A DNA stretch of 64,000 nt from Pedobacter sp. (lineage in GTDB: Bacteria; Bacteroidota; Bacteroidia; Sphingobacteriales; Sphingobacteriaceae): assembly GCF_031119335.1 (NCBI RefSeq), contig NZ_JAVHXT010000001.1, positions 470,548 to 534,547 on the forward strand, written 5' to 3'. Below the pieces are notes generated by a model. The model had not been told where the DNA came from, searched no databases, and saw only the letters and a program-made list of their open reading frames with translations. Shown here piece after piece: positions 9,792 to 38,906 of the stretch. A program made the position numbers and the translations under genes. Every line of letters begins with the position of its first letter. Position 1 is the first letter of the stretch.

Positions 9792-9796
9792 TTGAT

Positions 9797-10258
9797 ATGG
9801 CTGGAACATTTTCTCAGATTTACATACAAATAGTTTTTGCAGTAAAAGGGCGGGAGAGCCTAATAAACTCGATTTGGGAAGAGGATTTGTACAAATACAT
9901 TTCTGGGATTGTTAAAAACAAAGAGCAAAAAATGCTGGCAATTAATGGAATGCCGGATCATATCCATTTTTTGGTTGGATTAAAGCCGTCATGCTGTTTG
10001 TCTGATTTAGTTCGAGAAATAAAGAAATCGTCAAACGAATTTGTGAACGAGAAGCATTATTCGAAATTCAGATTTCAGTGGCAAGAGGGGTATGGAGCGT
10101 TCTCTTATAGCCATTCTTTATTAGATGATGTAATAGCATATATTAGCTGTCAAAAAGAACATCATAAAAAGAAAACATTTAAACAAGAGTACAAGGAATT
10201 CTTGGTGAAGTTTAATATTGAACATAAAGACGAATATTTATTTGAATGGTTGGACTGA
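9797..10258 (+). mobile_element. IS200/RAYT-like Y1 transposase
   Basis: An intact 153-residue HUH single-strand transposase of the IS200-like (Y1_Tnp) type. It has the metal-binding HxH in MPDHIHFLV (H55, H57) and the candidate nucleophile tyrosine in DDVIAYISCQKEHH (Y115). ATG at 9797 is preferred over an upstream TTG because MAGTFSQIYIQIVFA is the normal family start. It is a single gene without TnpB, and three evenly spaced palindromes begin 84 bases after its stop. Family knowledge makes this a likely REP-associated tyrosine transposase (RAYT). It sits tightly between the GH3-type gene and dxr. Confidence 0.82.
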
Positions 10259-16029: not shown

Positions 16030-19000
16030 ATGAAAGAAAACAAACTATTCAAATTGATCCTGCTGGTATTATTAACCACCATTTTCAGCACTTTTTCTAT
16101 AAAAAATGTTGTTGCTAATAAAGGGGTGGTCAATATCCAGCAACAATTTTCGGTAGTAGGTACAGTAAGCGATGAGAATAATTTTAAATCGCCAGGAGTA
16201 ACTGTACTTAACAAGAAAACCAAACAGACTGTTGTAACTAACGTAGATGGTGGGTATAGCATTAGAGCATCTAATGGCGATACAATACAGGTAAGGATGA
16301 CAGGATATGCTACCCAAACATTTGTGGCCAGAGATACAAGGAAGCGAGTTGATATTTCGCTTAAGGAAGACGTACAATTATTAAGAGCTGTACAGGTAAC
16401 TACAGCACTTGGTATCAAGAGGAGCGAAAAGGAATTAGGCTACGCTGTTACCCAAGTTGACGGCGATGATATCAACAAGGCTAAAGAAACCAACATAATG
16501 AACTCTTTATCTGGTAAGGTGGCTGGGTTGGTAATTAATAGTGGTGCAGGCGGACCTGCGGGCTCTTCGAGAGTAGTAATTAGGGGCGCAACGAGTATTA
16601 CTGGTAACAATCAGCCTTTGTACGTAGTAGACGGTATTCCTATGGATAATTCTAACTACGGCCAAGTAGGAACTGATCAATATGGCGCTGGTGTAGATAT
16701 GGGCGATGCGATTTCTGCTATCAATCCTGATGATATTGAAAGTATTTCTGTATTAAAAGGCCCAGCTGCAGCTGCATTGTATGGAAGTTTGGCCGGTAAC
16801 GGTGTAATACTAATCACTACTAAAAAAGGTACGAACAATAAAGAGTTAGGAATAGATTTTAACAGTACTAATACCATTGAAACACAGTTAACTAGATACG
16901 ATGATGTACAGTATCTGTATGGGCAGGGCCGAAATCAATTAATACCAACAGACCAAGCTACTGCATTTAACTCACTGTTCGTTAATTTCGGTGCAAGATT
17001 AGATCCTAATATTAGTTATGTTGGTTTTGATGGCATAACAAGACCATATGCGTTGGTTGAGAATAACATCCAGAATTTTTTCCGTACCGGATCATCTTTC
17101 AACAATACCATTGCTTTATCTAGTTCAACAGACAAATCGAGCTTCCGATTTTCTGCTGCAGATCTTAGATATGATGATATTGTGCCAGCAAGTGATATCA
17201 GAAGAAATACGTACACTTTTTCTGGCCGTTCTAAATTTGGTAATAAACTCACGCTTGATGTAAGAGCTTCTTACATGGATGAACGCGTAAATAATAGAGC
17301 TGGCTTAGGAGATTCTCCATCTAATATAGGTTGGGCATTTAATGGTTTAGCTAACAATATCGATCAACAATTATTTGCCACCAATTATACAAATCCGCAG
17401 GGCGATTATTTGGATTGGGGTGGAGGACAATTTCGTTTAAATCCGTATTGGGTAATTAACGAGATGTATAACAAAACGGATAAAGATAGACTTACTGGGG
17501 CGCTTAATGCTACCTATCAGTTTACAAAAGCTTTTAGTATCAACGCAAAGGCGGCCACCGATATCACTTTTTTAGATTATGAGAGTTACCGACCAATGAC
17601 CACTCCGGGCGCTCTTGGTGGTCAACTAGATCAAACCAAGCGAACTTTTACCACTAATCAAGTAGAAGTTTTAGCTAGCTACACCAAACAGGTTAATAAA
17701 GATTTTAATTTATCTGCAAGAATGGGCGGAAGTATCAACAAACGTATCCAAAAAGGGACAGTTTCCGCATTCTCCAATATGGTTGTTAAGGATGCAATTA
17801 CCCCGGGTAGCTACATAGATAAATCTGTGTTAGATAGTTACATTCCTCGTGAAATTAGATCTGTGTATGGTTTGGTAACTGTTGGTTTCAAAAACTACTT
17901 GTTTTTAGACGCTACTATTAGAAATGATGTTTCTTCTACCTTACCAGATGGCAACAACAGTTATACTTATCCCTCTTTATCTGCCAGTTTTGCTTTTACA
18001 GATGCATTTAATATAAAGAGTGATATTTTATCTTTCGGAAAGCTGAGGGCTTCTATAGCTGAGGTAGGAAGTGATACAGATCCGTTTATGTTAGACATGT
18101 ACTACATGTTGAACCAGCTTCCATTTAACGGACAATTGAATGGCAAAATATCTTCTAATGTTATACCTCCAAGTGATTTAAGACCAACAAGAACAAGATC
18201 TATTGAGTTTGGTACAAACATGAGGTTCTTTAAGAATAAAATCAATTTTGATGCAACTTTCTATAAATCAGATTCTAGAGATCAGATTAACAGAGTGCCA
18301 GCACCAGAATCTTCTGGATTTACCAACCAATTAATTAATGCTGGGGTAATTACCAACCACGGAATTGAATTATTGATTTCAGGTAGTCCATTATCAAATA
18401 AAAGCAAAGTTAAATGGAATGTAAGTGTAAACTTTGCTAGAAATAGAAGCGAAATAAAATCTCTATCCGATCGTGTAGGAGATTTCTTAACGCTGTCGCA
18501 AGCACGTTGGGCTGGTTTGCAAGTGGTAGCCAAGCCGGGTGAGCAATATGCAACCTTAATGGGTACCGATTTTAAGAGAGACCCTGACGGCAACGTTATC
18601 CTAAATTCTAGCAGTTTATTACCAATTATAGATCCAACACTGAGAGTATTAGGTAAAGGTATTTTCGACTGGACTGGTGGTATCACCAACCGAGTGTCTT
18701 ATGGTAATTTTAGCTTAGGTGCAGCATTAGACGTAAAATTTGGTGCAGATATGTTCTCGATGACCAATTTGTTTCTACATGCTAGAGGATCTGCCAACGC
18801 CACGCTAGAAGGTAGGGAAGAATGGATACTTTCTGAAGAAAGACGTTTGGCAGAAAAGAAAACATTTGCCCAATGGCAGGCAGAAGGCAAAGTTGGTGGA
18901 TTTGTACCAAAGGGAGTAATTAATACCGGTACAGAAGCAAATCCTGTTTACGTTACCAATACAAGAGCTATGGACCCTTCGTTATATTGGTCTACTTTCG

Positions 19001-19284
19001 TTACCGACGGTTCTATGGTAGCTCCTCCGTTTGTTTATAAAGCCAGTTATGTAAAAGTAAGAGAGTTAACATTCATCTATACTTTACCTCAAACACTAAA
19101 CAAGAAATTAGGTGTTAAAGGGGCTTCTTTAGGATTGGTAGCCAGAAATCCATTCATCATCTATAAAGACGTACCAAACGTAGATCCAGATTCTAACTAC
19201 AACAACAGTAATGGTCAGGGTTTAGAATATGGCTCGTTACCAACGCGTAGAGGTTGGGGCTTTAACCTTAATGTAAAGTTCTAA
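16030..19284 (+). CDS. SusC/RagA-family TonB-linked outer membrane transporter
   Basis: A 1084-residue outer membrane protein that imports oligosaccharides together with its SusD partner, powered by TonB-ExbBD. Visible parts are a signal peptide (about 1-29), a carboxypeptidase-like regulatory domain (about 40-110, with TVSDENNFKSPGVTV and the DGGYSI motif), a plug domain (about 130-260, with VAGLVINSGAGGPAGSSRVVIRG and the SusC-typical YVVDGIPMDN), and a beta-barrel ending in aromatic-rich NLNVKF. It is the first gene of the probable operon through 28753, 30 bases after operator B. The neighbouring GH18 and GH20 genes and nagA/nagB point to chitin or another GlcNAc-containing glycan as substrate. 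Confidence 0.95.
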   Translation: MKENKLFKLILLVLLTTIFSTFSIKNVVANKGVVNIQQQFSVVGTVSDENNFKSPGVTVLNKKTKQTVVTNVDGGYSIRASNGDTIQVRMTGYATQTFVARDTRKRVDISLKEDVQLLRAVQVTTALGIKRSEKELGYAVTQVDGDDINKAKETNIMNSLSGKVAGLVINSGAGGPAGSSRVVIRGATSITGNNQPLYVVDGIPMDNSNYGQVGTDQYGAGVDMGDAISAINPDDIESISVLKGPAAAALYGSLAGNGVILITTKKGTNNKELGIDFNSTNTIETQLTRYDDVQYLYGQGRNQLIPTDQATAFNSLFVNFGARLDPNISYVGFDGITRPYALVENNIQNFFRTGSSFNNTIALSSSTDKSSFRFSAADLRYDDIVPASDIRRNTYTFSGRSKFGNKLTLDVRASYMDERVNNRAGLGDSPSNIGWAFNGLANNIDQQLFATNYTNPQGDYLDWGGGQFRLNPYWVINEMYNKTDKDRLTGALNATYQFTKAFSINAKAATDITFLDYESYRPMTTPGALGGQLDQTKRTFTTNQVEVLASYTKQVNKDFNLSARMGGSINKRIQKGTVSAFSNMVVKDAITPGSYIDKSVLDSYIPREIRSVYGLVTVGFKNYLFLDATIRNDVSSTLPDGNNSYTYPSLSASFAFTDAFNIKSDILSFGKLRASIAEVGSDTDPFMLDMYYMLNQLPFNGQLNGKISSNVIPPSDLRPTRTRSIEFGTNMRFFKNKINFDATFYKSDSRDQINRVPAPESSGFTNQLINAGVITNHGIELLISGSPLSNKSKVKWNVSVNFARNRSEIKSLSDRVGDFLTLSQARWAGLQVVAKPGEQYATLMGTDFKRDPDGNVILNSSSLLPIIDPTLRVLGKGIFDWTGGITNRVSYGNFSLGAALDVKFGADMFSMTNLFLHARGSANATLEGREEWILSEERRLAEKKTFAQWQAEGKVGGFVPKGVINTGTEANPVYVTNTRAMDPSLYWSTFVTDGSMVAPPFVYKASYVKVRELTFIYTLPQTLNKKLGVKGASLGLVARNPFIIYKDVPNVDPDSNYNNSNGQGLEYGSLPTRRGWGFNLNVKF

Positions 19285-19355: not shown

Positions 19356-20945
19356 ATGAAAAAAATTAAATATATAGTATTACTAACGGTTGGTTTAAGT
19401 GCATTGTCCTGCAAGAAAATTACCGATCAGAATACAGATCTTACCAGATCAACTAATCTAGATCCAACAAGCCAGTTGATGTTTACACAAGCTTACTTTT
19501 CTGGGGATTTAGGTATACAAGAAAGAACGAATTATTTTTTGCTCATACCAATGATGCAACAGTTTGCAGGTGCTTTTAACATGAGCTTCGGGGCTGTGTA
19601 TAATAAAACACCTAGTCAAATGTGGAGGGCATTTGAAAACAGTTACCAGAATGATGTAGTTAACATTGTGGATGCTGTAGAACGTACCAACGGTGTTGCC
19701 AATAAAACAAATTTGAATGCGATGTGTCGCATTATGAAGGTTTACATATTTGCCCGATTGACAGATTTATATGGTGATATTCCATATTCTGAAGCTGGAA
19801 AGGGAAATTTGGCGGGTATCATAAGACCAAAGTATGATACACAAAAAGAGATTTATGATGATTTCTTTAAAGAACTAGCAGCTGCTTCGGCACAATTGGA
19901 TGCAACTAAAGACCCAGTTCCAAACGAATATTTCTACAGGGGAAATATTTTAGCTTGGAAAAAATTTGCTAATTCCCTCCGCCTACGTTTAGCAATGCGT
20001 TTAGGGAAAAGAGATCCAGAAAAAGCAAAACTAGAAATACAGGCGGCATATAATGCAGGTTTGTTTACTAGCAATGCTGATATCTGTATGATAAGGCATG
20101 AAAATGTGCCTAATAGCTATCAAGATATCAGACCTAATGGGATATCTGCAGCTTGGAATAGTAAAAATGAGATGGGACGTGTGGTAAACACGTTTTTAGA
20201 TGCACTCAGACTTACCAGTGATCCACGTTTCAATCATATTATTAAATGTTATAGAGAATTTGTTCCGGTAGCACCTACCAGATTTTTAGAAAGAGAAGAC
20301 ATTACAGCACAAGTTAAAGCTAAAATGAACTTGGTTGGTGGCATACCAGGTGCTACAAATTCCGAAAATCCACTAACTGTATCTGGAACAATTACACTGG
20401 CTAATGGAAGTGCTTATACACCAACTAGTTTAGATTTAAAACCTCAACTTAATCATAACCTACTGAGAAATGATGCGCCATTTTTTCACCTTACTTATGC
20501 AGAGGTTGAATTATTACTGGCTGATGCTACGGTACGTTTTGGGCTAAACTTAGGGGGAACTGCTGAAGAGCATTTTCACAGAGGAGTAGAAGCAGCTATG
20601 AGGCAGTTGAGTTTATATCCAAATGGTCCAGTGGTAACGGCTACAGAAATTAGCAACTTTAAGGCAGTAAACCCTTTAACTGTTGGTTCAGAATTGCAAC
20701 AAATTAACACCCAGTTATGGATTGCTTTATTACTAAACGGTAATGAAACTTATGCCAACTGGAGAAGAAGTGGCTATCCAATTCTCATTCCATCGCCAAC
20801 AAATAATTCGGCTTCGCAAACTATTCCAAGAAGATTTGAATATCCAAACAATGAGAAGTTACAGAATACAACGAACGTTAACGCTGCAATTCAACGCTTA
20901 GGCGCCGACGATTGGACAAGACGTGTTTGGTGGGATCAAGAATAA
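19356..20945 (+). CDS. SusD/RagB-family glycan-binding lipoprotein
   Basis: A 529-residue surface lipoprotein that forms the lid of the SusC transporter. The signal peptide ends in a lipobox (LSALSCKK, acylated Cys near residue 19). The N-terminal helical region contains ARLTDLYGDIPYSEA, typical of SusD-like (SusD/SusD-like_2) proteins, and the C-terminus has the conserved WRRSGYP-type segment (NWRRSGYPILIP). The gene follows susC by 71 bases in the same operon. Confidence 0.93.
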   Translation: MKKIKYIVLLTVGLSALSCKKITDQNTDLTRSTNLDPTSQLMFTQAYFSGDLGIQERTNYFLLIPMMQQFAGAFNMSFGAVYNKTPSQMWRAFENSYQNDVVNIVDAVERTNGVANKTNLNAMCRIMKVYIFARLTDLYGDIPYSEAGKGNLAGIIRPKYDTQKEIYDDFFKELAAASAQLDATKDPVPNEYFYRGNILAWKKFANSLRLRLAMRLGKRDPEKAKLEIQAAYNAGLFTSNADICMIRHENVPNSYQDIRPNGISAAWNSKNEMGRVVNTFLDALRLTSDPRFNHIIKCYREFVPVAPTRFLEREDITAQVKAKMNLVGGIPGATNSENPLTVSGTITLANGSAYTPTSLDLKPQLNHNLLRNDAPFFHLTYAEVELLLADATVRFGLNLGGTAEEHFHRGVEAAMRQLSLYPNGPVVTATEISNFKAVNPLTVGSELQQINTQLWIALLLNGNETYANWRRSGYPILIPSPTNNSASQTIPRRFEYPNNEKLQNTTNVNAAIQRLGADDWTRRVWWDQE

Positions 20946-20996: not shown

Positions 20997-22430
20997 ATGA
21001 AAAAAATTAAATTACTAGCGTATATATTGTTTTCGTTTGCATTGTTTTTAGGATGCAAAAAAGACGATGTTAAAGAGCAGGAGGAAAATAGTACGTTTAT
21101 TCCCCGAATTTTAGTAGGAAGCTCTGCAACAATATTCCCTGTACCGGGTACAACTCAATTACTAGACATTGGAGATGAGATTGATTTTTCTTCGGTACAA
21201 TTTACGCCGGCTGGCAAGGTGAGTGTGATCTGGAAAGTAGACGACGTACAAGTAGCAACTGGCGAAGATTACATTTTCAAAGCAACTACACCTGGCGAAC
21301 ACAGAATTAAAGTAGAGGCCACTTATGAAGGAATTACAGTAAATCGTTACAAAGACATTTTTGTGTTTTCAGACGGACAGGTTTCGTTCACACAAAAACC
21401 ATATACTAAAGTAGTGATGTCTTATCTTTCTGCCAGCGCAACCTTTGTGCAAATGAATGAAAATATCAGATGGAAAGATGTAACACATGCAGCGTTTAAA
21501 GGTGCTGCAGTTACTCCTGGTGGCGAGGTAAGTTTTGTAGAAGCTACAACTGATAGAAAGATAGAATTTTTTGTGCAAAAGGCACATTCAGAAGGTGTTT
21601 CTGCATTATTAGGAGTTAGTGGAACTTTATCTCTAGACGGTTGGAGTGTTTACAACAGTAGCGATTTTGGCGTAAGACTTAGAGATGCTGCTAAGAGAGA
21701 TGAAATAGCCCAAAAAGTAGTTGATTTTGTTAACCTACACCATATGGATGGGGTAGAAGTAAGAATGTCGGACGTTGGTAATGATGTTGAAGCAACTTTT
21801 CAAGGTAACATACAAGCTATTGGAGCTTTTGTAGATCGTTTACGTACGCTATTTGGGCCAAATAAAATAATTACGGTTTCTGTAGCTTCTCCAACGTTAA
21901 CTAGAGCAACCGGTGTATATTCTACTTGGGTAGTAGCAAAATATCTACCAGCTCAATTTAATAATGCTAATTGGATAAATGTTAGGGCTTATCTACAGTC
22001 TGCTTATTGGGGAGGTGTAAACGTACACGGCCAACCTTCTAATTACGAATTGATGGCAGAAGGGGTTAATTATTGGAAAACAAGAGTGCCACTAAATAAG
22101 ATTGTTGTTGGTATTCCAGCAATTGGAATTAGACACCTACAAACAACAACGCAGGCCAATGGGAATGTAATTAATAATGGCTGGGGAAACACTTTCTTCA
22201 ATTTTATACCGTACAGAGAAATTATAGCACAAAATTCTGCTAATGTAAATGAAGATTATACTGCTGCTATTTCGAGAGGTGTGTATTATAATGGTATCCC
22301 AACAATAACGCGTAAAGTGCAGTTGCTAAAAACTGAGAACGTTTTAGGAGCTTACGTATGGGCTGGCGAAAATGACACTGTAGACGATGCAACTTCTATC
22401 ATAGCAACAATTTCAAAAACTATAAAATAA
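20997..22430 (+). CDS. GH18-fold surface lipoprotein lacking catalytic residues
   Basis: A 477-residue lipoprotein (lipobox LFLGCKK) with an N-terminal Ig/PKD-like domain (about 45-130) and a GH18-type TIM barrel (about 137-475). The family catalytic signature DxxDxDxE reads D251-G-V-E254-V-R256-M-S258, so two of the three aspartates and the proton-donor glutamate are gone. The rest of the barrel is well kept. It occupies the SusE/SusF position right after susD. By analogy with non-catalytic GH18 lectins (concanavalin B, YKL-40), I infer a surface glycan-binding protein that holds GlcNAc-containing chains for the SusCD pair. Its stop overlaps the next start (TAATG). Confidence 0.85.
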   Translation: MKKIKLLAYILFSFALFLGCKKDDVKEQEENSTFIPRILVGSSATIFPVPGTTQLLDIGDEIDFSSVQFTPAGKVSVIWKVDDVQVATGEDYIFKATTPGEHRIKVEATYEGITVNRYKDIFVFSDGQVSFTQKPYTKVVMSYLSASATFVQMNENIRWKDVTHAAFKGAAVTPGGEVSFVEATTDRKIEFFVQKAHSEGVSALLGVSGTLSLDGWSVYNSSDFGVRLRDAAKRDEIAQKVVDFVNLHHMDGVEVRMSDVGNDVEATFQGNIQAIGAFVDRLRTLFGPNKIITVSVASPTLTRATGVYSTWVVAKYLPAQFNNANWINVRAYLQSAYWGGVNVHGQPSNYELMAEGVNYWKTRVPLNKIVVGIPAIGIRHLQTTTQANGNVINNGWGNTFFNFIPYREIIAQNSANVNEDYTAAISRGVYYNGIPTITRKVQLLKTENVLGAYVWAGENDTVDDATSIIATISKTIK

Positions 22431-23407
22431 TGAAGTTACTGAAGATTTTAATGACCCTATGTTTACTTCTGGTTGCTGAATTTTCTCAGGCACAATTTAA
22501 GGTAGTAGGCTACATTTGGTCTAGAAAAAACATAGTGCAAGATTTGAAAAAAATTGACCTTGACAAAATTACCCATCTAAATATCGCTTTTATTAATCCA
22601 ACACCAGAGGGAGATTTTAAAGATGTACCAGGCGTAGATACCGTAGTTCAAATTGCACACCAGAAAAACATTAAGGTTTTAATGTCTTGTGGCGGAGGTA
22701 GCAGTCATGCTTATTATGCTAAATTGTTAACAGAGAAATACAGGAAAGATTTGGTTAAAAACTTTATTAAAGTAGTAGATAGATACAATTTAGATGGTAT
22801 AGATGTTGATTTGGAAGGCGATGATATTGATGCGAACTACGAACCTTTTGTAGTTGGTTTGCGCAAGCCTCTAACCAAAAGAAAGAAGCTTTTAACCTCC
22901 GCAGTTGCTTGGTGGACTAGAGCTCGTATTACCGATGTAGCATTGGCGCAGTTCGATTTCATCAACATCATGGCTTATGATAAAACTGGCCCTTGGAAAC
23001 CAGAAGTGCCAGGGCAACACTCCCCAACTTCTTACGCAGAAGAGCATTTAGCTTATTGGCACAACGAAAGAGGTTTGAAGAAAGAAAACTTAAATGTGGG
23101 TCTTCCATTTTATGGCTATGGTTTTGGAGAATTACCTAGCAAAGACAGAGCCTTTAGACAGATTTCTTGGAACGATGTGGTAACCAAATATCCAGATAGG
23201 ATGGATCACGATGAAATTGTACTGCCAAACAGTGCTGGAACAATTTACTACAACGGCAAGAAAACCATCAAAGAGAAAACGGAACTGGCTACAAGGCAGG
23301 GTGGCGGTGTAATGATTTGGCAATTGCTTTATGACAGTTTCGACAGCAATTCGCTATTAAATCTCATCAATAATACTTACAAAAACACAACAGTTTCAGG
23401 CAAATAA
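22430..23407 (+). CDS. GH18 chitinase / endo-N-acetylglucosaminidase, secreted
   Basis: A compact 325-residue GH18 enzyme with a Sec signal peptide (cut after about FSQA, residue 21) and no lipobox. The catalytic signature is complete: D122-G-I-D125-V-D127-L-E129, with E129 as proton donor. MSCGGGS (strand 3) and INIMAYDKTGPW (strand 6, substrate Tyr/Asp) are also present. There are no extra binding modules, so it is probably periplasmic or released. Its start overlaps the upstream stop by one base. It is paralogous to the next gene with strong similarity throughout. GH18 covers both chitinases and endo-beta-N-acetylglucosaminidases, and sequence alone does not decide. Confidence 0.9.
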   Translation: MKLLKILMTLCLLLVAEFSQAQFKVVGYIWSRKNIVQDLKKIDLDKITHLNIAFINPTPEGDFKDVPGVDTVVQIAHQKNIKVLMSCGGGSSHAYYAKLLTEKYRKDLVKNFIKVVDRYNLDGIDVDLEGDDIDANYEPFVVGLRKPLTKRKKLLTSAVAWWTRARITDVALAQFDFINIMAYDKTGPWKPEVPGQHSPTSYAEEHLAYWHNERGLKKENLNVGLPFYGYGFGELPSKDRAFRQISWNDVVTKYPDRMDHDEIVLPNSAGTIYYNGKKTIKEKTELATRQGGGVMIWQLLYDSFDSNSLLNLINNTYKNTTVSGK

Positions 23408-23414
23408 AATTGAT

Positions 23415-24449
23415 ATGAAATTTCCTCAATATTTATTGTTTATGCTATTGCTATGCCTTATCGCTTGTAAAAAGCAGAAAAAAGATGAGGTATCGCCACC
23501 CAGAGAAGAGGTAGCGGAGGAAACTTTTGTACCCAAAAAACAAAACTTTAAAGTAGTAGGATATATTTGGTCTAGGGCAAATATCTTAGATGAATTGGTT
23601 AAAGTAGATTTTGATAAAATTACCCATCTTAATATTGCTTTTATTAATCCAAATCCTACTGAGGCAACATTTGCGGATATGCCTGCGCTACATACTGTGG
23701 TTAGAACTGCTCATCAAAAAGGTGTGTATGTTATGCTTTCGTGCGGGGGAGGCAGTCCTCAAAGGTATTACACCGAATTGCTTAGGACTAAGCGTGCTAC
23801 GCTGGTTAAGAACTTCATCGACTTTGTTGACAAATACAAGTTAGATGGCATAGATGTAGACTTAGAAGGGGATGATATTGACGCCAATTACGAAGCTTTT
23901 ATAACCGAACTAAAAGCACCTTTGGTAGAGCGTAATAAACTATTAACAGCGGCAGTAGCCTGGTGGACAAGAGCTAGAGTTACCGACAGAGCGCTACACG
24001 CATTTAATTTCATTAACATTATGGCTTACGATGCTACAGGTCCATGGGATTTGACCAACCCCGGGCAGCATTCTCCATTGTCTTACGCAGTACAGCACCT
24101 TAATTATTGGCACGGGCAACGAGGTTTGGTTAAAGAAAAGCTGGTGCTTGGGGTTCCTTTCTATGGCTATGGCTTTGGAACAGCTTTTACCAACAATGCT
24201 TCGTTAAGGCAAATGTCTTGGCAAACGGTTCAGCAGAATTATTCAGATTGGGTAGATGCAGACGCCATACCTTTTCCTAACAATGGTGGTACATTTTACT
24301 ATAATGGCAAAAAGACCATAAAGGAAAAAACAGAACTAGCTGTAAAAGATGCAGGTGGGATAATGATATGGCATTTATTGTATGATAGCGATAACCAAAA
24401 CTCACTCTTAACACTAATTGATAAAACCCACAAAGAGGCTACGAAATAA
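23415..24449 (+). CDS. GH18 chitinase / endo-N-acetylglucosaminidase, lipoprotein
   Basis: A 344-residue GH18 enzyme and tandem paralogue of the previous gene, 7 bases downstream. It differs at the N-terminus: a lipobox (LLCLIACKK) and an acidic linker suggest anchoring at the outer membrane. The catalytic signature is intact (D144-G-I-D147-V-D149-L-E151), as are MLSCGGGSP and INIMAYDATGPW. The pair probably splits the work, with one surface-attached and one soluble enzyme of similar specificity. Confidence 0.9.
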   Translation: MKFPQYLLFMLLLCLIACKKQKKDEVSPPREEVAEETFVPKKQNFKVVGYIWSRANILDELVKVDFDKITHLNIAFINPNPTEATFADMPALHTVVRTAHQKGVYVMLSCGGGSPQRYYTELLRTKRATLVKNFIDFVDKYKLDGIDVDLEGDDIDANYEAFITELKAPLVERNKLLTAAVAWWTRARVTDRALHAFNFINIMAYDATGPWDLTNPGQHSPLSYAVQHLNYWHGQRGLVKEKLVLGVPFYGYGFGTAFTNNASLRQMSWQTVQQNYSDWVDADAIPFPNNGGTFYYNGKKTIKEKTELAVKDAGGIMIWHLLYDSDNQNSLLTLIDKTHKEATK

Positions 24450-24482: not shown

Positions 24483-26339
24483 ATGATGAAGACACTCAAT
24501 TTATTAAGCTTACTACTTGTTGTGTTTATGTCCTGTAAGGGAGATAAAAGTGTTAAACCAGATGGCGAAGACCAAAAAAAGGAAGAAGTTGTATCGATTA
24601 GAAAAGGTAGTCCTTTTGATATTAATGGAAGATTAAAGTTGGCGGGTACAAACATTGTAAACCAAAAAGGAGCAGCCATACAATTACGTGGTATGAGTAC
24701 GCATGGCTTGCAGTATAGAGGTAATTGTTATAATGAAACTTCGTTAAATCTTCTGATGCATGGTTGGGGTATTGATGTGCTTCGTATTTCGATGTACATA
24801 CAAGAGGGAGGCTATGAAAAAGACCCGGTTTACTTTACCAAATTTGTAGATGATTTAGTAGAAAAATGCTATAAAGAAGGAGTTTACGCTTTAGTAGATT
24901 TTCACATGTTAGATCCTGGAGATCCAAATTATAATACCGAGAGAGCAAAAGTGTTTTTTGAGCACATGTCTAAAAAACATGCCAGCAAAGGCAATGTGAT
25001 CTACGAAATCTGTAATGAGCCAAATAACAAGCAATATGAAGTTACTTGGCCAATGATCAAAAACTATGCAGATCAAATTGTTCCCATCATCAGAAATAAT
25101 GATCCTCAATCTATCATCATTGTAGGTACACCAGAACACGCATCGAGGCCAGATTTGGTAATTGGAAACAAGCTGGCTTTTGAAAATATCATGTACACCA
25201 TGCACTTCTATGCGGCAGATAAATGGAGTGCCAACCACCAAGGTAGAAGAATGGGCTACGTATCTAAAGCTATTGCCAATGGTGTTCCGGTATTTGTAAC
25301 CGAATTTGGAACACAAGACGGCTGGGGCGATGGTGCTAACGATTTCGTAATGTCGGCCAAGTGGATGAAATTCATGGAAGAACGAAAGATCTCTTGGTGT
25401 AACTGGAACTACTCTGATAGTCCGCTGACAGGTGCAGCTTGGAAAACAGGAACATGCCCGAATGGACCATGGAGCGAAGAAAACTTGAAGGAAGCGGGAA
25501 AATGGATCAGAACGCAGTTAAGCACACCTGTAGATAATTGGACTGGAAATTACTTGCCTTGGAATTGGGAATACAATTTGGCTTCTGGTACTGGATCTGG
25601 AACGAGTTTAACTGCTACATCAGCTGTTCAAGTTTCAGAATCTAAAGTTGGTACTCCTGGCTTTTTACCATACCCAGCTATTGGCGCAGCAAGAACAGTT
25701 GTGGCGGCAAATGCAGGGGCTGGATTTAACCTTAATAATGGTGTATTAACTATTGGTGCAAGTAATGGTGCCGCTCCTAATAAATTCTCGTTGTATGATA
25801 TTGCAGGTTCCTCAACTTTGGTGAATTTATCTTTCAAATTATCGTTTAACAATAGCGTAAGCGGTACTGCAATTTTGGCAATTGGTGGTGGCGACGGAAA
25901 TCTTTTTAAGGCTAATGATGCTTACTCGAACAGCAAGCAAGAAGGCCTATTTGCAGCAATTAGGTTTTTGGTAGGCACCAATTCGTCAAATGCGCAATAC
26001 AGATATTTAGATGGCAGCTCTTATGTTCATAGATCTCACGATGTGGATGTTTTCCCTAGAACAAGCGACCTAAACTTTGAGGTGTATTGCAACAACACGG
26101 GTAATCCTAGGGTGTACAAAAAGGATGGGGTAGATTATACTTTACCTGCTGCATCATTTCATATGTATGTAAATGGAACAGCCGTTAAATATAGTGGTTC
26201 ACAGAACATCGCTTCAACAGGCGAACTGTTGCCTTACATGCCAATTGACGCTTTCATGGTTTCGGGAGCTAGCAGCACTGGAAACACTTTGAACTTTTCA
26301 GTAAGCAATATCAAAATCAAATCATTAATAGGAAACTAA
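24483..26339 (+). CDS. GH5 glycosidase with C-terminal unknown domain, lipoprotein
   Basis: A 618-residue lipoprotein (lipobox VVFMSCKG). Residues ~45-345 form a GH5 clan-A barrel with acid/base E179 (YEICNEPN) and nucleophile E274 (VTEFGTQDGWG), plus the GH5 motifs HGLQY and MHFYA, close to bacterial endoglucanase-type members. Residues ~360-618 form a beta-rich domain, starting WNWEYNLASGTG, that is repeated in the next two genes. In a locus for amino sugars the substrate may be chitosan or a mixed glycan rather than cellulose, since some GH5 members are chitosanases; this is inference. There are two adjacent ATG codons at the start, and the choice does not matter. Confidence 0.88.
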   Translation: MMKTLNLLSLLLVVFMSCKGDKSVKPDGEDQKKEEVVSIRKGSPFDINGRLKLAGTNIVNQKGAAIQLRGMSTHGLQYRGNCYNETSLNLLMHGWGIDVLRISMYIQEGGYEKDPVYFTKFVDDLVEKCYKEGVYALVDFHMLDPGDPNYNTERAKVFFEHMSKKHASKGNVIYEICNEPNNKQYEVTWPMIKNYADQIVPIIRNNDPQSIIIVGTPEHASRPDLVIGNKLAFENIMYTMHFYAADKWSANHQGRRMGYVSKAIANGVPVFVTEFGTQDGWGDGANDFVMSAKWMKFMEERKISWCNWNYSDSPLTGAAWKTGTCPNGPWSEENLKEAGKWIRTQLSTPVDNWTGNYLPWNWEYNLASGTGSGTSLTATSAVQVSESKVGTPGFLPYPAIGAARTVVAANAGAGFNLNNGVLTIGASNGAAPNKFSLYDIAGSSTLVNLSFKLSFNNSVSGTAILAIGGGDGNLFKANDAYSNSKQEGLFAAIRFLVGTNSSNAQYRYLDGSSYVHRSHDVDVFPRTSDLNFEVYCNNTGNPRVYKKDGVDYTLPAASFHMYVNGTAVKYSGSQNIASTGELLPYMPIDAFMVSGASSTGNTLNFSVSNIKIKSLIGN

Positions 26340-26352
26340 ACTAAACAACAAT

Positions 26353-27228
26353 ATGAAAACTAGATTTTTAACATTAGCCATTTTGGGCCTAGCTGTAACC
26401 GCAGTTAAAGCACAAACTTATGGTACCTGGAAAGGCTCAAAAGAAGCTACTTCTTGGAACTACGATTTGGGAACAGGAACAGGTTCTGGCAAGAAATTTA
26501 ATGCAGGTTCGGAAGCAAAAACATCTGAAGCTAGCAAAGACAAACCTGGCTTTTTGCCATTCCCTGCAGTGGGTACAGCTAGGGTAGTGGTTGCTCCATC
26601 TGCTGGTGCTGGTTTTTCGGTAAATAAATCGGCGATTAATTTTGGAGCTAGTAACTCAGAAGCACCAACCAAATTCTCGGTAACCGATATACCTCAATCA
26701 TCGCCAGTGGGCAGTTTGTTTTTCACTTTATCATTTAACGATGGAACAAAAGGTACTGCAGTTTTAGCTTTCGGTAACTCGCAAACAAGCTTGTTCAAAA
26801 ATGCAGCTGCCTACAACAACAGAAAGCAAGAAGGGCTATTTGGCGCTATCAGATTTATGGTAGGTAGCACTTATACCAATCCCGAGCATAGGTCGGCTAG
26901 CGGATCGTCTTATATGCACAAGCCTTACGATACTGATATTTTCGATAAAAACGGAAACCTAAATGTAGAGATTTACAGCAACAACTCTAAAGAAGAGCAG
27001 TCGTTCACTCGTAAAGGAAATGTTTACGCCATACCAGCTCAAACATTCAAAATCTTTGTAAACGATAAGGCTTTAAAGCTAAACGGTTCAGAAAATCTTC
27101 CTGCAACGGGTGAATTAGATGCAAATATGGCTATCGATGCTTTTATGCTATCTGGTGCTAGTAGTGCCGAAAATACTTTAAGTTTCTCTATTAGCAATAT
27201 CAAGGCAGGTACATTAACTCAAAATTAA
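26353..27228 (+). CDS. secreted protein consisting of the GH5-associated unknown domain
   Basis: A 291-residue protein: a signal peptide cut after AVKAQ (about residue 21), then a single domain clearly homologous to the C-terminal domain of the preceding GH5 protein. Shared landmarks include GTGTGSG, PGFLPFPAVGTARVVVA, AGAGFSVN, KQEGLFGAIRFMVG, LNVEIYSNN and IDAFMLSGASS. The domain looks beta-rich, with no catalytic motif that I recognise. The gene begins 13 bases after the GH5 stop. A carbohydrate-binding or accessory role is plausible from its fusion to GH5 and its operon position, but unproven. Confidence 0.75.
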   Translation: MKTRFLTLAILGLAVTAVKAQTYGTWKGSKEATSWNYDLGTGTGSGKKFNAGSEAKTSEASKDKPGFLPFPAVGTARVVVAPSAGAGFSVNKSAINFGASNSEAPTKFSVTDIPQSSPVGSLFFTLSFNDGTKGTAVLAFGNSQTSLFKNAAAYNNRKQEGLFGAIRFMVGSTYTNPEHRSASGSSYMHKPYDTDIFDKNGNLNVEIYSNNSKEEQSFTRKGNVYAIPAQTFKIFVNDKALKLNGSENLPATGELDANMAIDAFMLSGASSAENTLSFSISNIKAGTLTQN

Positions 27229-27256
27229 TCACATATCAACCTTTAAACCAACCATT

Positions 27257-28753
27257 ATGAAATTAAAACTTCTACTATCTACAGGTCTACTTTTGGTAGG
27301 CACACATTTGGCTAAAGCACAAGCTACTTATGGTACTTGGGTGGGTGCTAGTCAGGCTACATCTTTTGATTATAATGTTGCTGCGGGAACTCTGGGAGCT
27401 AACTATGCTTCGGAGGCACTAGCTAAAACTTCTTTATCAACCACTTCTTCTGTTGGATTTTTAGTAGCGCCATCATCTGGAACAGCTAAAGTACACACAG
27501 CAGCTAGTGCAGGTCCTGGGTTTACAATCGATGGTTCAAAGCTAACTTTCTCAGCTAGTAACCTAGCAGGAAACGCAAATAAGTTCGCTATTTATGGTCT
27601 AGAAAATACGTCTGCAGTTACAAGTATCTTTTTTAGATTGAATTTCAATAATGCTGATACTCAGCCTGTCGCTAATGCTTCAGAACGTACTCAAATCACT
27701 ATAGCTTTTGGTAAATCATCAGCCGATAACATTTTTGAAAATAATAGTCAAATGTGGGATCAAGTACTGACTGGAATATTTGGAGGGTTTAGATTTCAAA
27801 TTGGGGGTCTTCCTAACGGAGGAGTACGCCATTATAGAACAAATGTTGGTTCTCCCTACGGTTATACTGGTGCAGATGCCCCAAGCAACAGCAACACAAT
27901 ATTTAACAAAACATCTGATTTAGATGTAGAAATTTATTGCAACAACACTGCTACTGATAAACAGTATAGTAGGTTAGGGGGTGCACCGATTACATTACCA
28001 GGGAGAACTTATAATGTTTATGTAAATGGTGTGTTGTTAATTGTACAGATTACAGCACCAAATCAAATTTCTAATATTCCTGCATCAGCAGAAATAGCGG
28101 CAGATACTAAAATAGATGCTATGTTTATATCTGGATATAACTTAAAATCTGGTAGTGTTGGTAACATATCTATCAGTAACATCAAATTCGGTTGGATACC
28201 TGAAAGTGTTTTACCAGCAGATTTAACTTCGTTTACAGGAAAGAAAACAAGTAATGGCGCAGAATTAAACTGGGCTACCGCATCTGAAAAAGACAATGAT
28301 TATTTCGAGGTTTTAAGAGCATCGCAAGATGGTGTTTTCAAAGCAATTGATAAAGTAAACGGAAAAGGAACTACTAACGGAAACAGCAACTATCAATTCG
28401 TAGATCAAAATCCTTTAAACGGAAATAATTACTATAAATTGAAGCAAGTAGACTTAAACGGAAATAGCAAAGAATATGGTCCGGTAATCGTAAGTTTTGA
28501 TTTGACAACAAGTAAATTAGCAGCTTCTGTAAATGCAGATCATCATTTATTGCTCACTTATCAAGCTACCGAAAACACAAATGCTGATATCACCATTGTT
28601 GATTTAAACGGAAAGAAATTGATTTCTCAAAAAATGAATTTTACTAAAGGTTTAAACCAAGCAAAGCTTGATGTAAGTGCATTGCCTAAAGGATTGTATT
28701 TAATTAAACTTGGCGCTAAAGGAAATAATAGTGCTGCAAAATTTATAAAGTAA
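27257..28753 (+). CDS. T9SS-exported protein with the same unknown domain
   Basis: A 498-residue protein with a signal peptide (cut near AKAQ, residue 22), a divergent third copy of the unknown domain (about 25-312, with YGTWVGASQATSFDYN, SAGPGF, GIFGGFRFQIGG, LDVEIYCNN and IDAMFISGY), a fibronectin-III-like segment (about 318-415, LTSFTGKKTSNGAELNWATASE) and a C-terminal type A sorting domain of the type IX secretion system (about 425-498, ending PKGLYLIKLGAKG). It is therefore probably delivered to the surface or released by T9SS. It is the last gene of the susC-led run; a hairpin follows. Confidence 0.8.
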   Translation: MKLKLLLSTGLLLVGTHLAKAQATYGTWVGASQATSFDYNVAAGTLGANYASEALAKTSLSTTSSVGFLVAPSSGTAKVHTAASAGPGFTIDGSKLTFSASNLAGNANKFAIYGLENTSAVTSIFFRLNFNNADTQPVANASERTQITIAFGKSSADNIFENNSQMWDQVLTGIFGGFRFQIGGLPNGGVRHYRTNVGSPYGYTGADAPSNSNTIFNKTSDLDVEIYCNNTATDKQYSRLGGAPITLPGRTYNVYVNGVLLIVQITAPNQISNIPASAEIAADTKIDAMFISGYNLKSGSVGNISISNIKFGWIPESVLPADLTSFTGKKTSNGAELNWATASEKDNDYFEVLRASQDGVFKAIDKVNGKGTTNGNSNYQFVDQNPLNGNNYYKLKQVDLNGNSKEYGPVIVSFDLTTSKLAASVNADHHLLLTYQATENTNADITIVDLNGKKLISQKMNFTKGLNQAKLDVSALPKGLYLIKLGAKGNNSAAKFIK

Positions 28754-31825: not shown

Positions 31826-33025
31826 ATGAGTAATTATATCAAAATATTTAATGGCAATATTATCACTCCAAATGGGGTTTTAAATGATGGTACGCTATTA
31901 ATTTCAGATGGAGAAATAGCAGAAATAAGTGCCAGAAATATTGAGGTAGCTAACGCTGTAGAAATAGATGCACAAGGGAAATACGTTTCTCCAGGCTTTA
32001 TAGATATGCATGTACATGGTGGTGGCGGTCACGATTTTATGGACAACACCTTGGAAGCTTTTCTAACCATTGCTAAAACACATGCGCAATACGGTACCAC
32101 GGCTTTAATGCCAACCACTTTAAGTTGCGAGAAAGAAGATTTACTAACCACACTTGCCATTTACGAACAGGCTGATGCTCTAAATCGAGAAGGCGCAGAT
32201 TTTCTAGGTATCCATATTGAAGGGCCGTATTTTGCGATGTCGCAAAAGGGAGCGCAAGACCCAAGGTATATCCGCAATCCAAATCCGGCAGAGTACAAAG
32301 AAATACTGGCGGCTTCAAAACATATTAAAAGGTGGAGTGCTGCCCCAGAATTGCCAGGAACTATTGAGTTTGGTCAGTTCTTGAAACAAAACAACGTGCT
32401 TGCTGCAATTGCCCATACTGATGCCATTTACGAAGAAGTTGTAAAAGCTTATGAAGTTGGTTTTACCCATGCTACACACTTTTATTCGTGTATGTCGGGA
32501 GTTTCTAGGCGTTACGCTTATCGCTACGCGGGAGTAATAGAAAGCGCTTATTTAATGGATGATATGACGGTTGAGATCATCGTTGATGGTGTTCATTTAC
32601 CTGCGCCATTGTTAAAATTAATTTACAAAATAAAAGGTACAGAACACACCGCCCTAATCACCGATGCCATGAGAGGTGCGGGAATGCCCGAAGGGCCAAG
32701 CAAACTGGGTAGTTATAAAGATGGTTTGGACGTCATTATCGAAGATGGTGTTGCCAAATTACCAGATCGTACTGCGTTTGCGGGTAGCGTAGCGACAACA
32801 GATAGATTGGTGAGAAATATGATGGCATTAGCCGATGTTTCTTTGTTGGATGCCGTTAAAATGGCTAGTGCCACACCGGCTAAAATCTTAAATATTCAGG
32901 ATAGGAAAGGAGAGTTGGTAAAAGGTAAAGATGCCGATATCGTAATTTTTGATGAGGAGATTAATATAGATACCACTATTGTTAAAGGCAATGTGGTTTA
33001 CAGTAAAGAGAAGATAGCAATTTAG
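31826..33025 (+). CDS. nagA: N-acetylglucosamine-6-phosphate deacetylase
   Basis: NagA removes acetate from GlcNAc-6-phosphate, giving glucosamine-6-phosphate for NagB. The 399-residue protein has the amidohydrolase motif H62-V-H64 (FIDMHVHGGGG), metal ligand E132 (GIHIEGPYF), metal-site histidines H197 and H218, substrate histidine region THATHFYSCMSG and catalytic D280 (ITDAMRGAG). It follows the transporter by 6 bases. The pathway also needs a GlcNAc kinase, which this window does not contain. Confidence 0.94.
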   Translation: MSNYIKIFNGNIITPNGVLNDGTLLISDGEIAEISARNIEVANAVEIDAQGKYVSPGFIDMHVHGGGGHDFMDNTLEAFLTIAKTHAQYGTTALMPTTLSCEKEDLLTTLAIYEQADALNREGADFLGIHIEGPYFAMSQKGAQDPRYIRNPNPAEYKEILAASKHIKRWSAAPELPGTIEFGQFLKQNNVLAAIAHTDAIYEEVVKAYEVGFTHATHFYSCMSGVSRRYAYRYAGVIESAYLMDDMTVEIIVDGVHLPAPLLKLIYKIKGTEHTALITDAMRGAGMPEGPSKLGSYKDGLDVIIEDGVAKLPDRTAFAGSVATTDRLVRNMMALADVSLLDAVKMASATPAKILNIQDRKGELVKGKDADIVIFDEEINIDTTIVKGNVVYSKEKIAI

Positions 33026-33031
33026 ATAACA

Positions 33032-33141
33032 AACCACAAAGACACAAAGAACACTAAGTAAGAATAATATTTTGAATTATTTAGCGCTAAAATTTGCTCG
33101 CTTTAGAAATAGAGCTTTGTGTCCTTAGTGTCTTTGTGGTT
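33032..33141. repeat. AACCACAAAGACAC inverted repeat
   Basis: The left arm (33032-33058) and right arm (33115-33141) are inverted copies of an AACCACAAAGACAC-type sequence, with two short blocks exchanged. This kind of element is widespread between Bacteroidota genes. Its right arm reads through in the frame of the next gene and produces a false longer N-terminus. Confidence 0.7.
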
Positions 33142-33154
33142 AATAACAAAAAGT

Positions 33155-33796
33155 GTGAGAAGATTAGAGATACCTTTTTTAGATACAGATGGAGTGCAGG
33201 AAGTTGAACAAATCAGTCAGTTAATGGATGCTTTGAAAACAACACCTATTGATTGTAATCCGTGGCCTGCTTATCAGGCAAATGCCGATGCTAAGTTTTC
33301 GATGGCGCATAACGGTCAATCTATTTTATTGAAATATGTGATTGCCGAAAAATACCTTTTAGCAAATGAAGTAACTAACGGGAATATCCATAATGACAGC
33401 TGTGTAGAGCTTTTTATTGCTTTTGATGAGCATGGCTATTATAACTTAGAATTCAATTGCTTAGGTTTTACCAAAATAGGTTACGGAACTGGTAGGCATG
33501 GGCGTAGATTATTGCCTGTCGATGTGATTAAGCAATTGAGTTTTTCTTCTAAAATTAACTCCAATAGTACCATTAATAGCAATACCGGTTTCGATTGGGA
33601 AATTATGTTAGTAATACCTAAAGCGATTTTTACCAAACATCAAATCACTTCTTTTAATAACCTAAAAGCAAAAGGTAATTTCTATAAATGTGGCGATGGT
33701 TTACCGCAACCTCATTTCCTTACTTGGAATATGATAGAAGCCGAAAAACCTGATTTTCACAGGAAAGAATTTTTTGGAGAGCTGGAGTTTAGTTAA
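33155..33796 (+). CDS. CBM9-like carbohydrate-binding protein
   Basis: A 213-residue protein resembling CBM9-like (DOMON-type) domains: DAKFSMAHNGQSILLKYVIAE, then NDSCVELFIAFDEHGYYNLEFNCLG, and an aromatic-rich end (LTWNMIEAEKPDFHRKEFFGEL). No signal peptide is visible, so it seems cytosolic or needs another start. GTG at 33155 is chosen because upstream codons lie within an inverted repeat. It is the last plus-strand gene of this block. Homologues usually bind sugars or accompany glycan-degradation genes; a catalytic role is not evident. Confidence 0.7.
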   Translation: MRRLEIPFLDTDGVQEVEQISQLMDALKTTPIDCNPWPAYQANADAKFSMAHNGQSILLKYVIAEKYLLANEVTNGNIHNDSCVELFIAFDEHGYYNLEFNCLGFTKIGYGTGRHGRRLLPVDVIKQLSFSSKINSNSTINSNTGFDWEIMLVIPKAIFTKHQITSFNNLKAKGNFYKCGDGLPQPHFLTWNMIEAEKPDFHRKEFFGELEFS

Positions 33797-37772: not shown

Positions 37773-38906
37773 TTAAACTTTTACGTAGATCTTCTTCTTA
37801 TCGAGGATTAATCCTATTATCCAAAGCAACAGCATATATAATATTGCAAATACTAGGGAAGCATTTTTATCGGCTAACCAACTGGTTAAACCATTTTTGT
37901 AGAATAAAGATGGTAAAGAAGAGCCATCAATTTTAATGAGGTATAAAAGCTTCATAATTATCCAAGCGAGAATGTAGATAAACAGTGCATTTTTACCGAA
38001 AACCTCAAAAAAGTAAGTCCATTTTTTGAAATTAAGTACGTCAATTAATGCGATTAATAAGCCTGTGATTACTAAATCCCAACCCAAAGAAAAAAGTACA
38101 TAAGAGCTGGTCCAAATAGGTTTGTTGATAGGGATGCTGTAGTTCCACACAAAACCTAAGGCTAAAAAGGCTATGCCCACACCCACTAAGCGATAAACAG
38201 CGGTAGGATTATTCCCTTGTTTTTGCAGATATTTGCCAGTAAGATAACCAATTAATACGTTTACGATGGCAGGAAAAGTGCTCAGTAATCCCTCTGGATC
38301 AAAAGCAACACCAAAACCCTGATATAAATTTTTGCTGTTGAAGAGGAAATCATCTAAAGCTTTGGCTGCATTTCCTTCTAAACTGTAAGGGTTGCCCAGC
38401 TGACCAAAATAGTATAAAATACCCCAGTAAGTAAGTAATATTACTGCACTTATAACGGCAATGGATGTTGTTTTTCTAAAGAAATAGATGATTAAACTTC
38501 CAAAGAAATAACACAAGGCGATACGCTGCAAAACCCCAAATATCCTAACCTCTAAAAAGTTTTTTAAAGAAACACTGCCATCTTCGCCAAATACTACAAA
38601 TGGAAAGAGATTGAGTAGTAGCCCGATGATAAAGATAATGAGTGCTCGTTTAGCTACTTTTTTAAAGAAATCTCCAAAGGAAACCTCTTCTAGTTTTTTT
38701 AAGCTAAAGCTCAAAGCATTACCTACTACAAAAAGAAAAGTAGGGAATACAAGGTCTGTTAAGGTAAAACCATGCCATTCTGCGTGTTTAAAAGGTGCGT
38801 AAATGTGGCTCCAACTGCCGGGAGTGTTTACTACAATCATTAAGGCAACGGTTAATCCTCGTAAAACATCTAAGGATAAATACCTTTGCGAAATCGTCTT
38901 CTTCAT
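37773..38906 (-). CDS. HGSNAT/NagX-like membrane acetyltransferase (DUF5009 type)
   Basis: The 377-residue polytopic protein starts RYLSLDVLRGLTVALMIVVNTPG and contains KHAEWHGFTLTDLVFPTFLFVVG, the motif set of the heparan-alpha-glucosaminide N-acetyltransferase family (COG4299). About ten hydrophobic helices follow. The lysosomal enzyme moves acetyl groups from cytosolic acetyl-CoA to glucosamine on the other side of the membrane; bacterial nag-locus members are called NagX and are little studied. It heads the minus-strand unit with GH20. Another copy lies after nagB. Acetylation of glucosamine is inferred from family and context. Confidence 0.82.
   Translation of the reverse strand: MKKTISQRYLSLDVLRGLTVALMIVVNTPGSWSHIYAPFKHAEWHGFTLTDLVFPTFLFVVGNALSFSLKKLEEVSFGDFFKKVAKRALIIFIIGLLLNLFPFVVFGEDGSVSLKNFLEVRIFGVLQRIALCYFFGSLIIYFFRKTTSIAVISAVILLTYWGILYYFGQLGNPYSLEGNAAKALDDFLFNSKNLYQGFGVAFDPEGLLSTFPAIVNVLIGYLTGKYLQKQGNNPTAVYRLVGVGIAFLALGFVWNYSIPINKPIWTSSYVLFSLGWDLVITGLLIALIDVLNFKKWTYFFEVFGKNALFIYILAWIIMKLLYLIKIDGSSLPSLFYKNGLTSWLADKNASLVFAILYMLLLWIIGLILDKKKIYVKV

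What the first reader, a model, noticed from the sequence alone, without database searches (positions are those of the whole stretch)
24483..28753. Three consecutive genes share an unrecognised ~260-residue secreted domain
The C-terminal half of the GH5 enzyme (residues ~360-618), an entire 291-residue exported protein, and the first ~310 residues of a T9SS-sorted protein are homologous. Shared landmarks are a WxYxL/TSxDYN start, PGFLPxPAxGxARxVVA, AGAGF, KQEGLFxAIRFxVG, LxVEIYxNN and IDAFMxSGAS. Seen directly: three tandem copies in three architectures (enzyme-fused, stand-alone, T9SS-exported). I know no family with this signature. Inference: a new carbohydrate-binding or matrix-forming module for GlcNAc-type glycans, provided in lipoprotein-anchored, soluble and T9SS-delivered forms.
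Basis: partly seen in the sequence, partly recalled or inferred. Interest (0 to 1): 0.72.

Follow-up and report, generated by a model that had tools for sequence, protein, structure and literature searches.

The report
New lectin-fold module deployed three ways
Three neighbouring genes in a bacterial sugar-degradation cluster each carry a copy of one protein module that matched no sequence family in the libraries searched; it is predicted to fold like plant and animal lectins and likely helps the bacterium hold the polymer its enzymes cut, and the copy predicted to be exported to the cell surface differs far more between relatives than the other two.

The parts
16030..19284 (+). SusC-like outer-membrane transporter of the locus
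   Evidence: ORF; name recalled from sequence and position, not scanned with Pfam; homologues recur next to the module
19356..20945 (+). SusD-like lipoprotein
   Evidence: ORF; name recalled from sequence and position; homologues
20997..22430 (+). GH18-like lipoprotein whose catalytic motif is degenerate (DGVEVRMS in place of DGIDVDLE); likely a binding protein
   Evidence: PF00704 57.3 bits; motif comparison
22430..23407 (+). GH18 enzyme with intact DGIDVDLE motif, signal peptide
   Evidence: PF00704 132.4 bits; motif
23415..24449 (+). GH18 lipoprotein with intact DGIDVDLE motif
   Evidence: PF00704 137.3 bits; motif
24483..25538 (+). GH5 catalytic part (residues 1-352); NEP and TEFG catalytic-glutamate motifs; Cys18 lipobox-like start (by eye)
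   Evidence: PF00150 181.1 bits; best solved relative 2cks endoglucanase E-5, E 1.9e-87; motifs
25539..26336 (+). Module copy 1, fused to the GH5 (residues 353-618)
   Evidence: BLASTP E 3e-86 to copy 2
26353..27228 (+). Module copy 2, stand-alone 291-aa protein with signal-peptide-like start, no lipobox seen, no T9SS tail matched
   Evidence: predicted structure
27257..28204 (+). Module copy 3, N-terminal part of the T9SS protein (signal-peptide-like start plus residues 20-316); the hypervariable copy
   Evidence: BLASTP E 7e-42 to copy 2; divergence
28205..28753 (+). Linker region and T9SS C-terminal sorting domain of the third gene
   Evidence: PF18962 residues 435-497; TIGR04183
28889..30472 (+). 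GH20-like exported enzyme
   Evidence: PF00728 60.7 bits
30494..31819 (+). Sugar transporter (MFS-like)
   Evidence: ORF and conserved position; name recalled from sequence
31826..33025 (+). N-acetylglucosamine-6-phosphate deacetylase-like (NagA)
   Evidence: ORF and conserved position; name recalled from sequence
33119..33796 (+). CBM9_2 family protein
   Evidence: PF16011 194.1 bits

Best explanation
GH5 residues 353-618, the 291-residue protein and residues 20-316 of the next protein are three copies of one module that gave no significant match in our Pfam, NCBIfam and PDB-sequence scans, and that is predicted to fold as a concanavalin-A/L-type-lectin jelly roll and likely works as a non-catalytic glycan-binding module for the polymer this locus degrades. 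Shown by calls: the homology, the lack of a match in the libraries scanned, the tight gene spacing, the fusions to GH5, GH18 and PL8 enzymes, the recurring stand-alone/T9SS gene pair, and the faster divergence of the T9SS-tailed copy. Predicted: the fold and the export route. Inferred: glycan binding, and a division of labour in which the enzyme-fused copy would hold the GH5 lipoprotein on its substrate, the stand-alone copy would capture fragments as a soluble protein (likely periplasmic, as it has a signal-peptide-like start but no lipobox or T9SS tail), and the T9SS copy would act as an exported surface lectin that meets the varying outside world. The ligand is likely a HexNAc-containing glycan here, with glycosaminoglycan-type ligands in the PL8 loci.
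Against: No binding data exist, and a shared fold shows no function: the same fold hosts PL14 and PL36 alginate lyases, also among the matches. No coordinates were available, so no binding groove or ligand residues could be mapped. Two fused partners are not glycan enzymes (Exo_endo_phos, Endonuclease I). Of the 23 scanned fusions, 12 showed no catalytic domain over cut-off. Five of 14 collapsed locus groups have no HexNAc or PL8/GH88 marker, and loci of other taxa or with short flanks show one in only 8 of 31. In 10 of 16 multi-copy groups the copies do not cluster by locus. The context markers were chosen from module loci themselves, which favours the enrichment.
Confidence: 0.6

Rival explanations
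1. The module is a homotypic assembly or matrix domain: enzyme, free protein and exported protein would stick to one another through the shared module and form a surface complex, rather than bind glycan.
For: The same module sits in three products of one gene cluster; copies form a locus clade in 6 of 16 multi-copy groups; a stand-alone gene directly followed by a module-plus-tail gene recurs in 16 of 21 cases.
Against: The T9SS copy diverges much faster than its would-be partners, which is unexpected for a conserved self-interface; 10 of 16 groups do not cluster by locus; many fused proteins have no second copy in the stretch fetched.
Confidence: 0.12
2. The module is itself an enzyme, a new lyase or hydrolase on the concanavalin-A-like fold used by PL7, PL14, PL36 and GH16 enzymes.
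For: PL14 and PL36 alginate lyases and a GH16 enzyme are among the structural matches; K107 92%, Y218 96%, R180 80%, E206 79%, Y208 76% and R167 71% are well conserved.
Against: Only G141 and N210 are invariant over 93 copies; E206 is also D 11% and Q 7%; Y218 is F in the window's stand-alone copy; the module is fused to enzymes of several unrelated catalytic classes.
Confidence: 0.12
3. The module is a general adhesion or surface-retention domain of secreted Bacteroidota enzymes whose target is the cell's own envelope or exopolysaccharide, not the substrate.
For: Partners include nucleases and unclassified proteins as well as glycan enzymes; scattered distribution over the phylum; few markers around copies in other taxa (8 of 31 loci).
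Against: Family loci are strongly biased to HexNAc/PL8 systems (22 of 30 versus 3 of 40); the stand-alone copy carries no export tail to reach a surface.
Confidence: 0.1

Closest known systems
Middle domain of sialidase BT_1020 (PDB 5mqr, residues 413-615)
   Different: Only 10-12% sequence identity, and it did not appear in profile searches even at E 10; its function was not found in the papers searched
CBM-like domain of GH181 sialidase AmGH181/Am1547 (8axs, 8hls)
   Different: 6-10% identity; described there as unique to GH181; fused to a beta-propeller sialidase
L-type lectins (ERGIC-53, VIP36, Emp46/47, legume lectins)
   Different: 4-12% identity; metal-binding loops not tested; not parts of degradative enzymes (recalled)
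CBM40 sialic-acid-binding modules
   Different: One weak PF02973 hit only (E 0.042); no sialidase domain in the fused partners scanned
Flavobacterium johnsoniae chitin utilisation locus (ChiA, CusC/D)
   Same: SusC/D pairs, GH18 and GH20 enzymes, and a T9SS-secreted component with a previously unidentified chitin-binding region (PMC5127042 passages)
   Different: There the binding region is inside one T9SS chitinase and was assigned other Pfam repeats; here one module is spread over a lipoprotein enzyme, a free protein and a T9SS protein

Membership tests
Concanavalin-A-like / L-type lectin fold superfamily | Two-sheet antiparallel jelly-roll sandwich | tested here: met
Concanavalin-A-like / L-type lectin fold superfamily | Metal-binding loop and sugar site of L-type lectins | not testable with these tools
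   No model coordinates were returned, so residues could not be superposed
CAZy carbohydrate-binding module (new family) | Discrete domain contiguous with a carbohydrate-active enzyme | tested here: met
   Fused to GH5 (window), GH18 (L045, L054, by BLAST), PL8 (L055, L094, L100, L101)
CAZy carbohydrate-binding module (new family) | Demonstrated carbohydrate binding without catalysis | not testable with these tools
   Needs a bench assay
CBM40 (PF02973) | Significant profile match | tested here: not met
   1 of 17 and 1 of 39 members listed, best E 0.042, not significant
CBM40 (PF02973) | Glu/Arg/Arg sialic-acid site on the concave face (PMC5736709) | tested here: inconclusive
   Conserved R167, R180, E206 and Y208 exist but could not be placed in 3D
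Concanavalin-A-fold lyases and hydrolases (PL14, PL36, GH16) | Conserved catalytic residues | tested here: inconclusive
   Only G141 and N210 invariant in 93 copies; structural rows present but catalytic positions not superposed
GH5 (catalytic half of gene 1) | GH5 profile and two catalytic glutamates | tested here: met
   PF00150 181.1 bits; NEP at 178 and TEFG at 273; closest solved relative 2cks
T9SS type A cargo (gene 3) | C-terminal sorting domain | tested here: met
   PF18962 41.7 bits over 27; TIGR04183 37.4 over 23

The most novel reading that the evidence does not exclude
A lectin-fold module family in which sugar-degradation loci repeatedly rebuild the same kit (enzyme-fused, free and surface-exported copies) by duplication inside the locus, and in which the exported copy is a fast-diversifying surface lectin whose binding domain is swapped or driven to vary, on a sorting tail that varies less in this locus type, by phage or glycan diversity, while its siblings stay fixed.
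Probability: 0.22. Interest if true: 0.75.

Novelty: new variant of a known kind. Interest (0 to 1): 0.52.

Why it matters
If binding is confirmed, this adds a carbohydrate-binding module family to CAZyme annotation, covering proteins that had no significant Pfam or NCBIfam match in our scans and offering a probe for HexNAc and glycosaminoglycan polymers. The locus design, with one module used in a lipoprotein enzyme, a soluble protein and a T9SS cargo, is a natural experiment on where binding is needed. The hypervariable exported copy makes a testable case of diversifying pressure, or domain exchange, on a likely nutrient-capture surface protein in an environmental bacterium.

Tried and rejected
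Membership in a catalogued family: Pfam, NCBIfam and PDB sequence searches gave for the module only non-significant rows such as MliC, urease and alphaRep. Rows for PF18962 and DUF3244 come with the full-length T9SS members; DUF3244 lies on the tail. NCBIfam was run on window proteins only. PADLOC, two proteins: nothing.

Plasmid-borne spread: no plasmid record matches the DNA or the stand-alone protein.

GlcNAc specificity as the single rule: rejected as too narrow, because PL8 and DUF4955/beta-helix fusions and two nuclease fusions exist.

'Copies always cluster by locus': rejected; 6 of 16 multi-copy groups do, 10 do not. Two of the six include one or two copies from other loci, and the window-type and second-type groups were merged from 3 and 8 loci by hand before the count.

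Positive selection on the exported copy: not claimed. dN/dS of the window-type T9SS module is 0.17-0.28 with saturated dS, against 0.04-0.07 for the sibling copies. One pair of tails in the second locus type has a ratio of 1.44 on very small distances and is not used.

Mapping the binding groove: not possible, no coordinates. BT_1020 domain function: papers not held or uninformative. A search for chondroitin lyase, type IX secretion, concanavalin A-like and Pedobacter (three of four) gave no paper.

A name of '3-keto-disaccharide hydrolas(e)' on one distant homologue (P0067) was not backed by Pfam.

Four fetched loci (L115-L118) showed no module copy in the ORFs that my script called.

Full report
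What is there. Three genes run head to tail on the + strand at 24483-26339, 26353-27228 and 27257-28753, with gaps of 13 and 28 bases, inside a run that starts with SusC/SusD-like genes and three GH18-family genes and continues with a GH20-like gene, a transporter, NagA and a CBM9_2 protein (SusC, SusD, transporter and NagA named from recall). Residues 353-618 of the first (GH5, lipoprotein-like start), residues 19-291 of the second and residues 20-316 of the third align along the module: 49%, 34% and 32% identity, E 3e-86, 7e-42 and 4e-32. The genome holds these three and one distant fourth copy (G000:C10:198091, 275 aa). The gene before that fourth copy has in L046 a counterpart (by gene order and visible similarity) with a weak polysaccharide-lyase match (PF14099, 27.1 bits, cut-off 29.9), and a GH20 lies about 6.5 kb away.

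Is it a known family? Pfam and NCBIfam scans of the three proteins gave GH5 and the T9SS sorting domain but nothing significant for the module. Pfam scans of 17, 6 and 39 members (overlapping sets that include window copies) and three PDB sequence searches gave only non-significant rows for it.

Who carries it. At E <= 0.001: 12 of 145 genomes of the genus (profile A1), 27 of 399 of the family, 10 of 395 of the class and 8 of 395 of the phylum (profile A2; each count includes the window's own genome, samples overlap, few candidates scored per genome). The window-type locus recurs in Pedobacter xixiisoli, Pedobacter sp. ASV28 and an assembly labelled Flavobacteriaceae bacterium PS02338; from contig lengths the first two are G163 and G131, which the tool places in the window's genus.

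What it is attached to. I scanned with Pfam 23 proteins that are neither plain stand-alone nor module-plus-tail (window GH5; two, one, nine, ten). Over cut-off: GH5 (1), PL8 (L055, L094, L100, L101), beta-helix pectate-lyase-like with DUF4955 (L095, L097, L103, L104), Exo_endo_phos (L061) and Endonuclease I (L111): 11 of 23. The other 12 showed no catalytic domain over cut-off; L098 has a near-threshold Alginate_lyase match (21.6, cut-off 22.2). L096, L109, L114 and L123 were not scanned. By BLAST only: L047 and L048 are GH5 fusions, L045 and L054 GH18 fusions, and L093 matches the PL8 protein.

Context control. Module loci of the family (30 stretches of 10-22 kb): 22 carry at least one HexNAc marker (NagA, NagB, GH20, GH20-like, GH18: 16 loci) or PL8/GH88 (6 loci). 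SusD loci of 16 family genomes (40 stretches of 13-19 kb): 3 of 40 (BLASTP E 1e-10, half the marker covered; Fisher p 1.5e-8). Collapsing related loci by hand into 14 groups gives 9 of 14 (p 6e-5); the five without are L058/L059, L060/L061, L126 (beside an alpha-L-fucosidase), L127 and L128/L129. Limits: the markers were taken from the window and L055, so the test is not blind. The controls were picked by me from the top-scoring PF07980 rows (roughly every fourth row, leaving out one near a module locus, then a second set of 20 by eye), so they are not random. Module loci of other taxa or with short flanks show markers in 8 of 31, of which 27 contain a module hit.

The recurring pair. Of 21 stand-alone module genes in the fetched loci, 16 are followed directly on the same strand by a module-plus-tail gene, 9-96 bases away; the window is one more case. 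They are not independent: two of the 16 are window-type and eight belong to the second locus type. PF18962 matches 33 of 37 module-plus-tail proteins at E <= 0.01, not all over its curated cut-off.

Tree. With 93 copies (quick maximum likelihood, SH-aLRT support), the window-type copies form one clade, ((stand-alone, GH5-fused), T9SS), support 96-99. In all, 6 of 16 multi-copy groups are locus clades at support 96 or more: window type, L127, L131, L099, L061 with L060, and L106 with L128/L129. Three of them (window type, L099, L106) hold all three architectures. Ten are not: seven with PL8 markers, L104, L126 and the GH20/beta-helix type. So the kit was likely assembled more than once by duplication in place, but not always.

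The exported copy varies most. Between the window, P. xixiisoli (L047) and ASV28 (L048), the T9SS copy's module is 44-53% identical, its own tail 67-80%, the stand-alone protein 85-87%, the GH5-fused module 84-91%, and eight other genes or gene parts of the locus 68-96%; the lowest of these is the degenerate GH18 protein, at 68% (several compared in two genomes only). dN is 0.37-0.53 for the T9SS module versus 0.05-0.10 for the two sibling copies. In six loci of the second type the T9SS modules fall in two classes, 54-58% between and 81-98% within, while the stand-alone copies stay at 78-95%; there the tail (61-93%) is no more conserved than the module. Window versus L047 has tail dS 0.60 but module dS 1.87, which hints at different histories of module and tail. 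dN/dS of the module stays below 1, so this is acceleration or exchange, not shown positive selection.

Mechanism. I commit to a likely glycan-binding module placed where the locus needs it: on the GH5 lipoprotein, as a soluble protein, and as a T9SS-exported surface lectin. Shown: homology, architectures, context bias, divergence pattern. Predicted: fold, export. Inferred: binding, ligand class, location of the stand-alone copy. The literature searched (nine searches; listings, plus passages of PMC10067855, PMC5736709 and PMC5127042; no paper read whole) showed me no description of this family; most subscription papers are not in that library.

Verdict. Real, without a match in the libraries scanned, known fold, plausible function, untested. 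Interest comes from the three-way deployment, its repeated reassembly and the unexpected variability of the exported copy.

Noticed in passing
window 20997-22430: GH18-family lipoprotein in the third position after SusC/SusD has lost the DxxDxDxE catalytic motif (DGVEVRMS), so it is likely a binding protein built from a dead chitinase; it is also less conserved (68%, two genomes) than the other genes compared.
   Followed up: partly
L044, L049-L053, L124, L125: A second locus type shares the GH20-like gene and the module pair (and, where in range, transporter, NagA and CBM9_2) but has no GH18/GH5 marker; instead there are a right-handed beta-helix protein (Pfam on L044 and L124) and a fasciclin-CBM96 lipoprotein (Pfam on L044), pointing to another HexNAc polymer.
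   Followed up: partly
L060 and L061: SusC/SusD loci with Exo_endo_phos proteins, GDSL esterases and one (L060) or three (L061) copies of the module; target polymer unclear.
   Followed up: partly
G000:C10:188500-206500 (L043): A distant fourth copy of the module (275 aa) sits between a gene in the position of a PF14099-like lyase and a gene whose L046 counterpart carries a T9SS tail; no T9SS copy of the module beside it.
   Followed up: partly
window 37773-38906 (-) and 39880-41019 (+): Two similar membrane proteins (NagX/DUF5009-like, name recalled) flank the NagB-like gene (name recalled) on opposite strands.
   Followed up: no
window 59234-60715 and 61830-63332, both (-): Two similar TPR-type regulator-like proteins (by eye) with near-identical C-terminal ends, on either side of a 244-aa gene on the other strand.
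   Followed up: no
window 9788-10258: A 156-aa ORF resembling a REP-associated tyrosine transposase (recalled, not scanned), downstream of a GH3-auxin-like gene (recalled).
   Followed up: no
window 27257-28753 versus L047: Module and T9SS tail of the same gene have very different synonymous divergence (1.87 and 0.60), a hint of domain exchange.
   Followed up: partly
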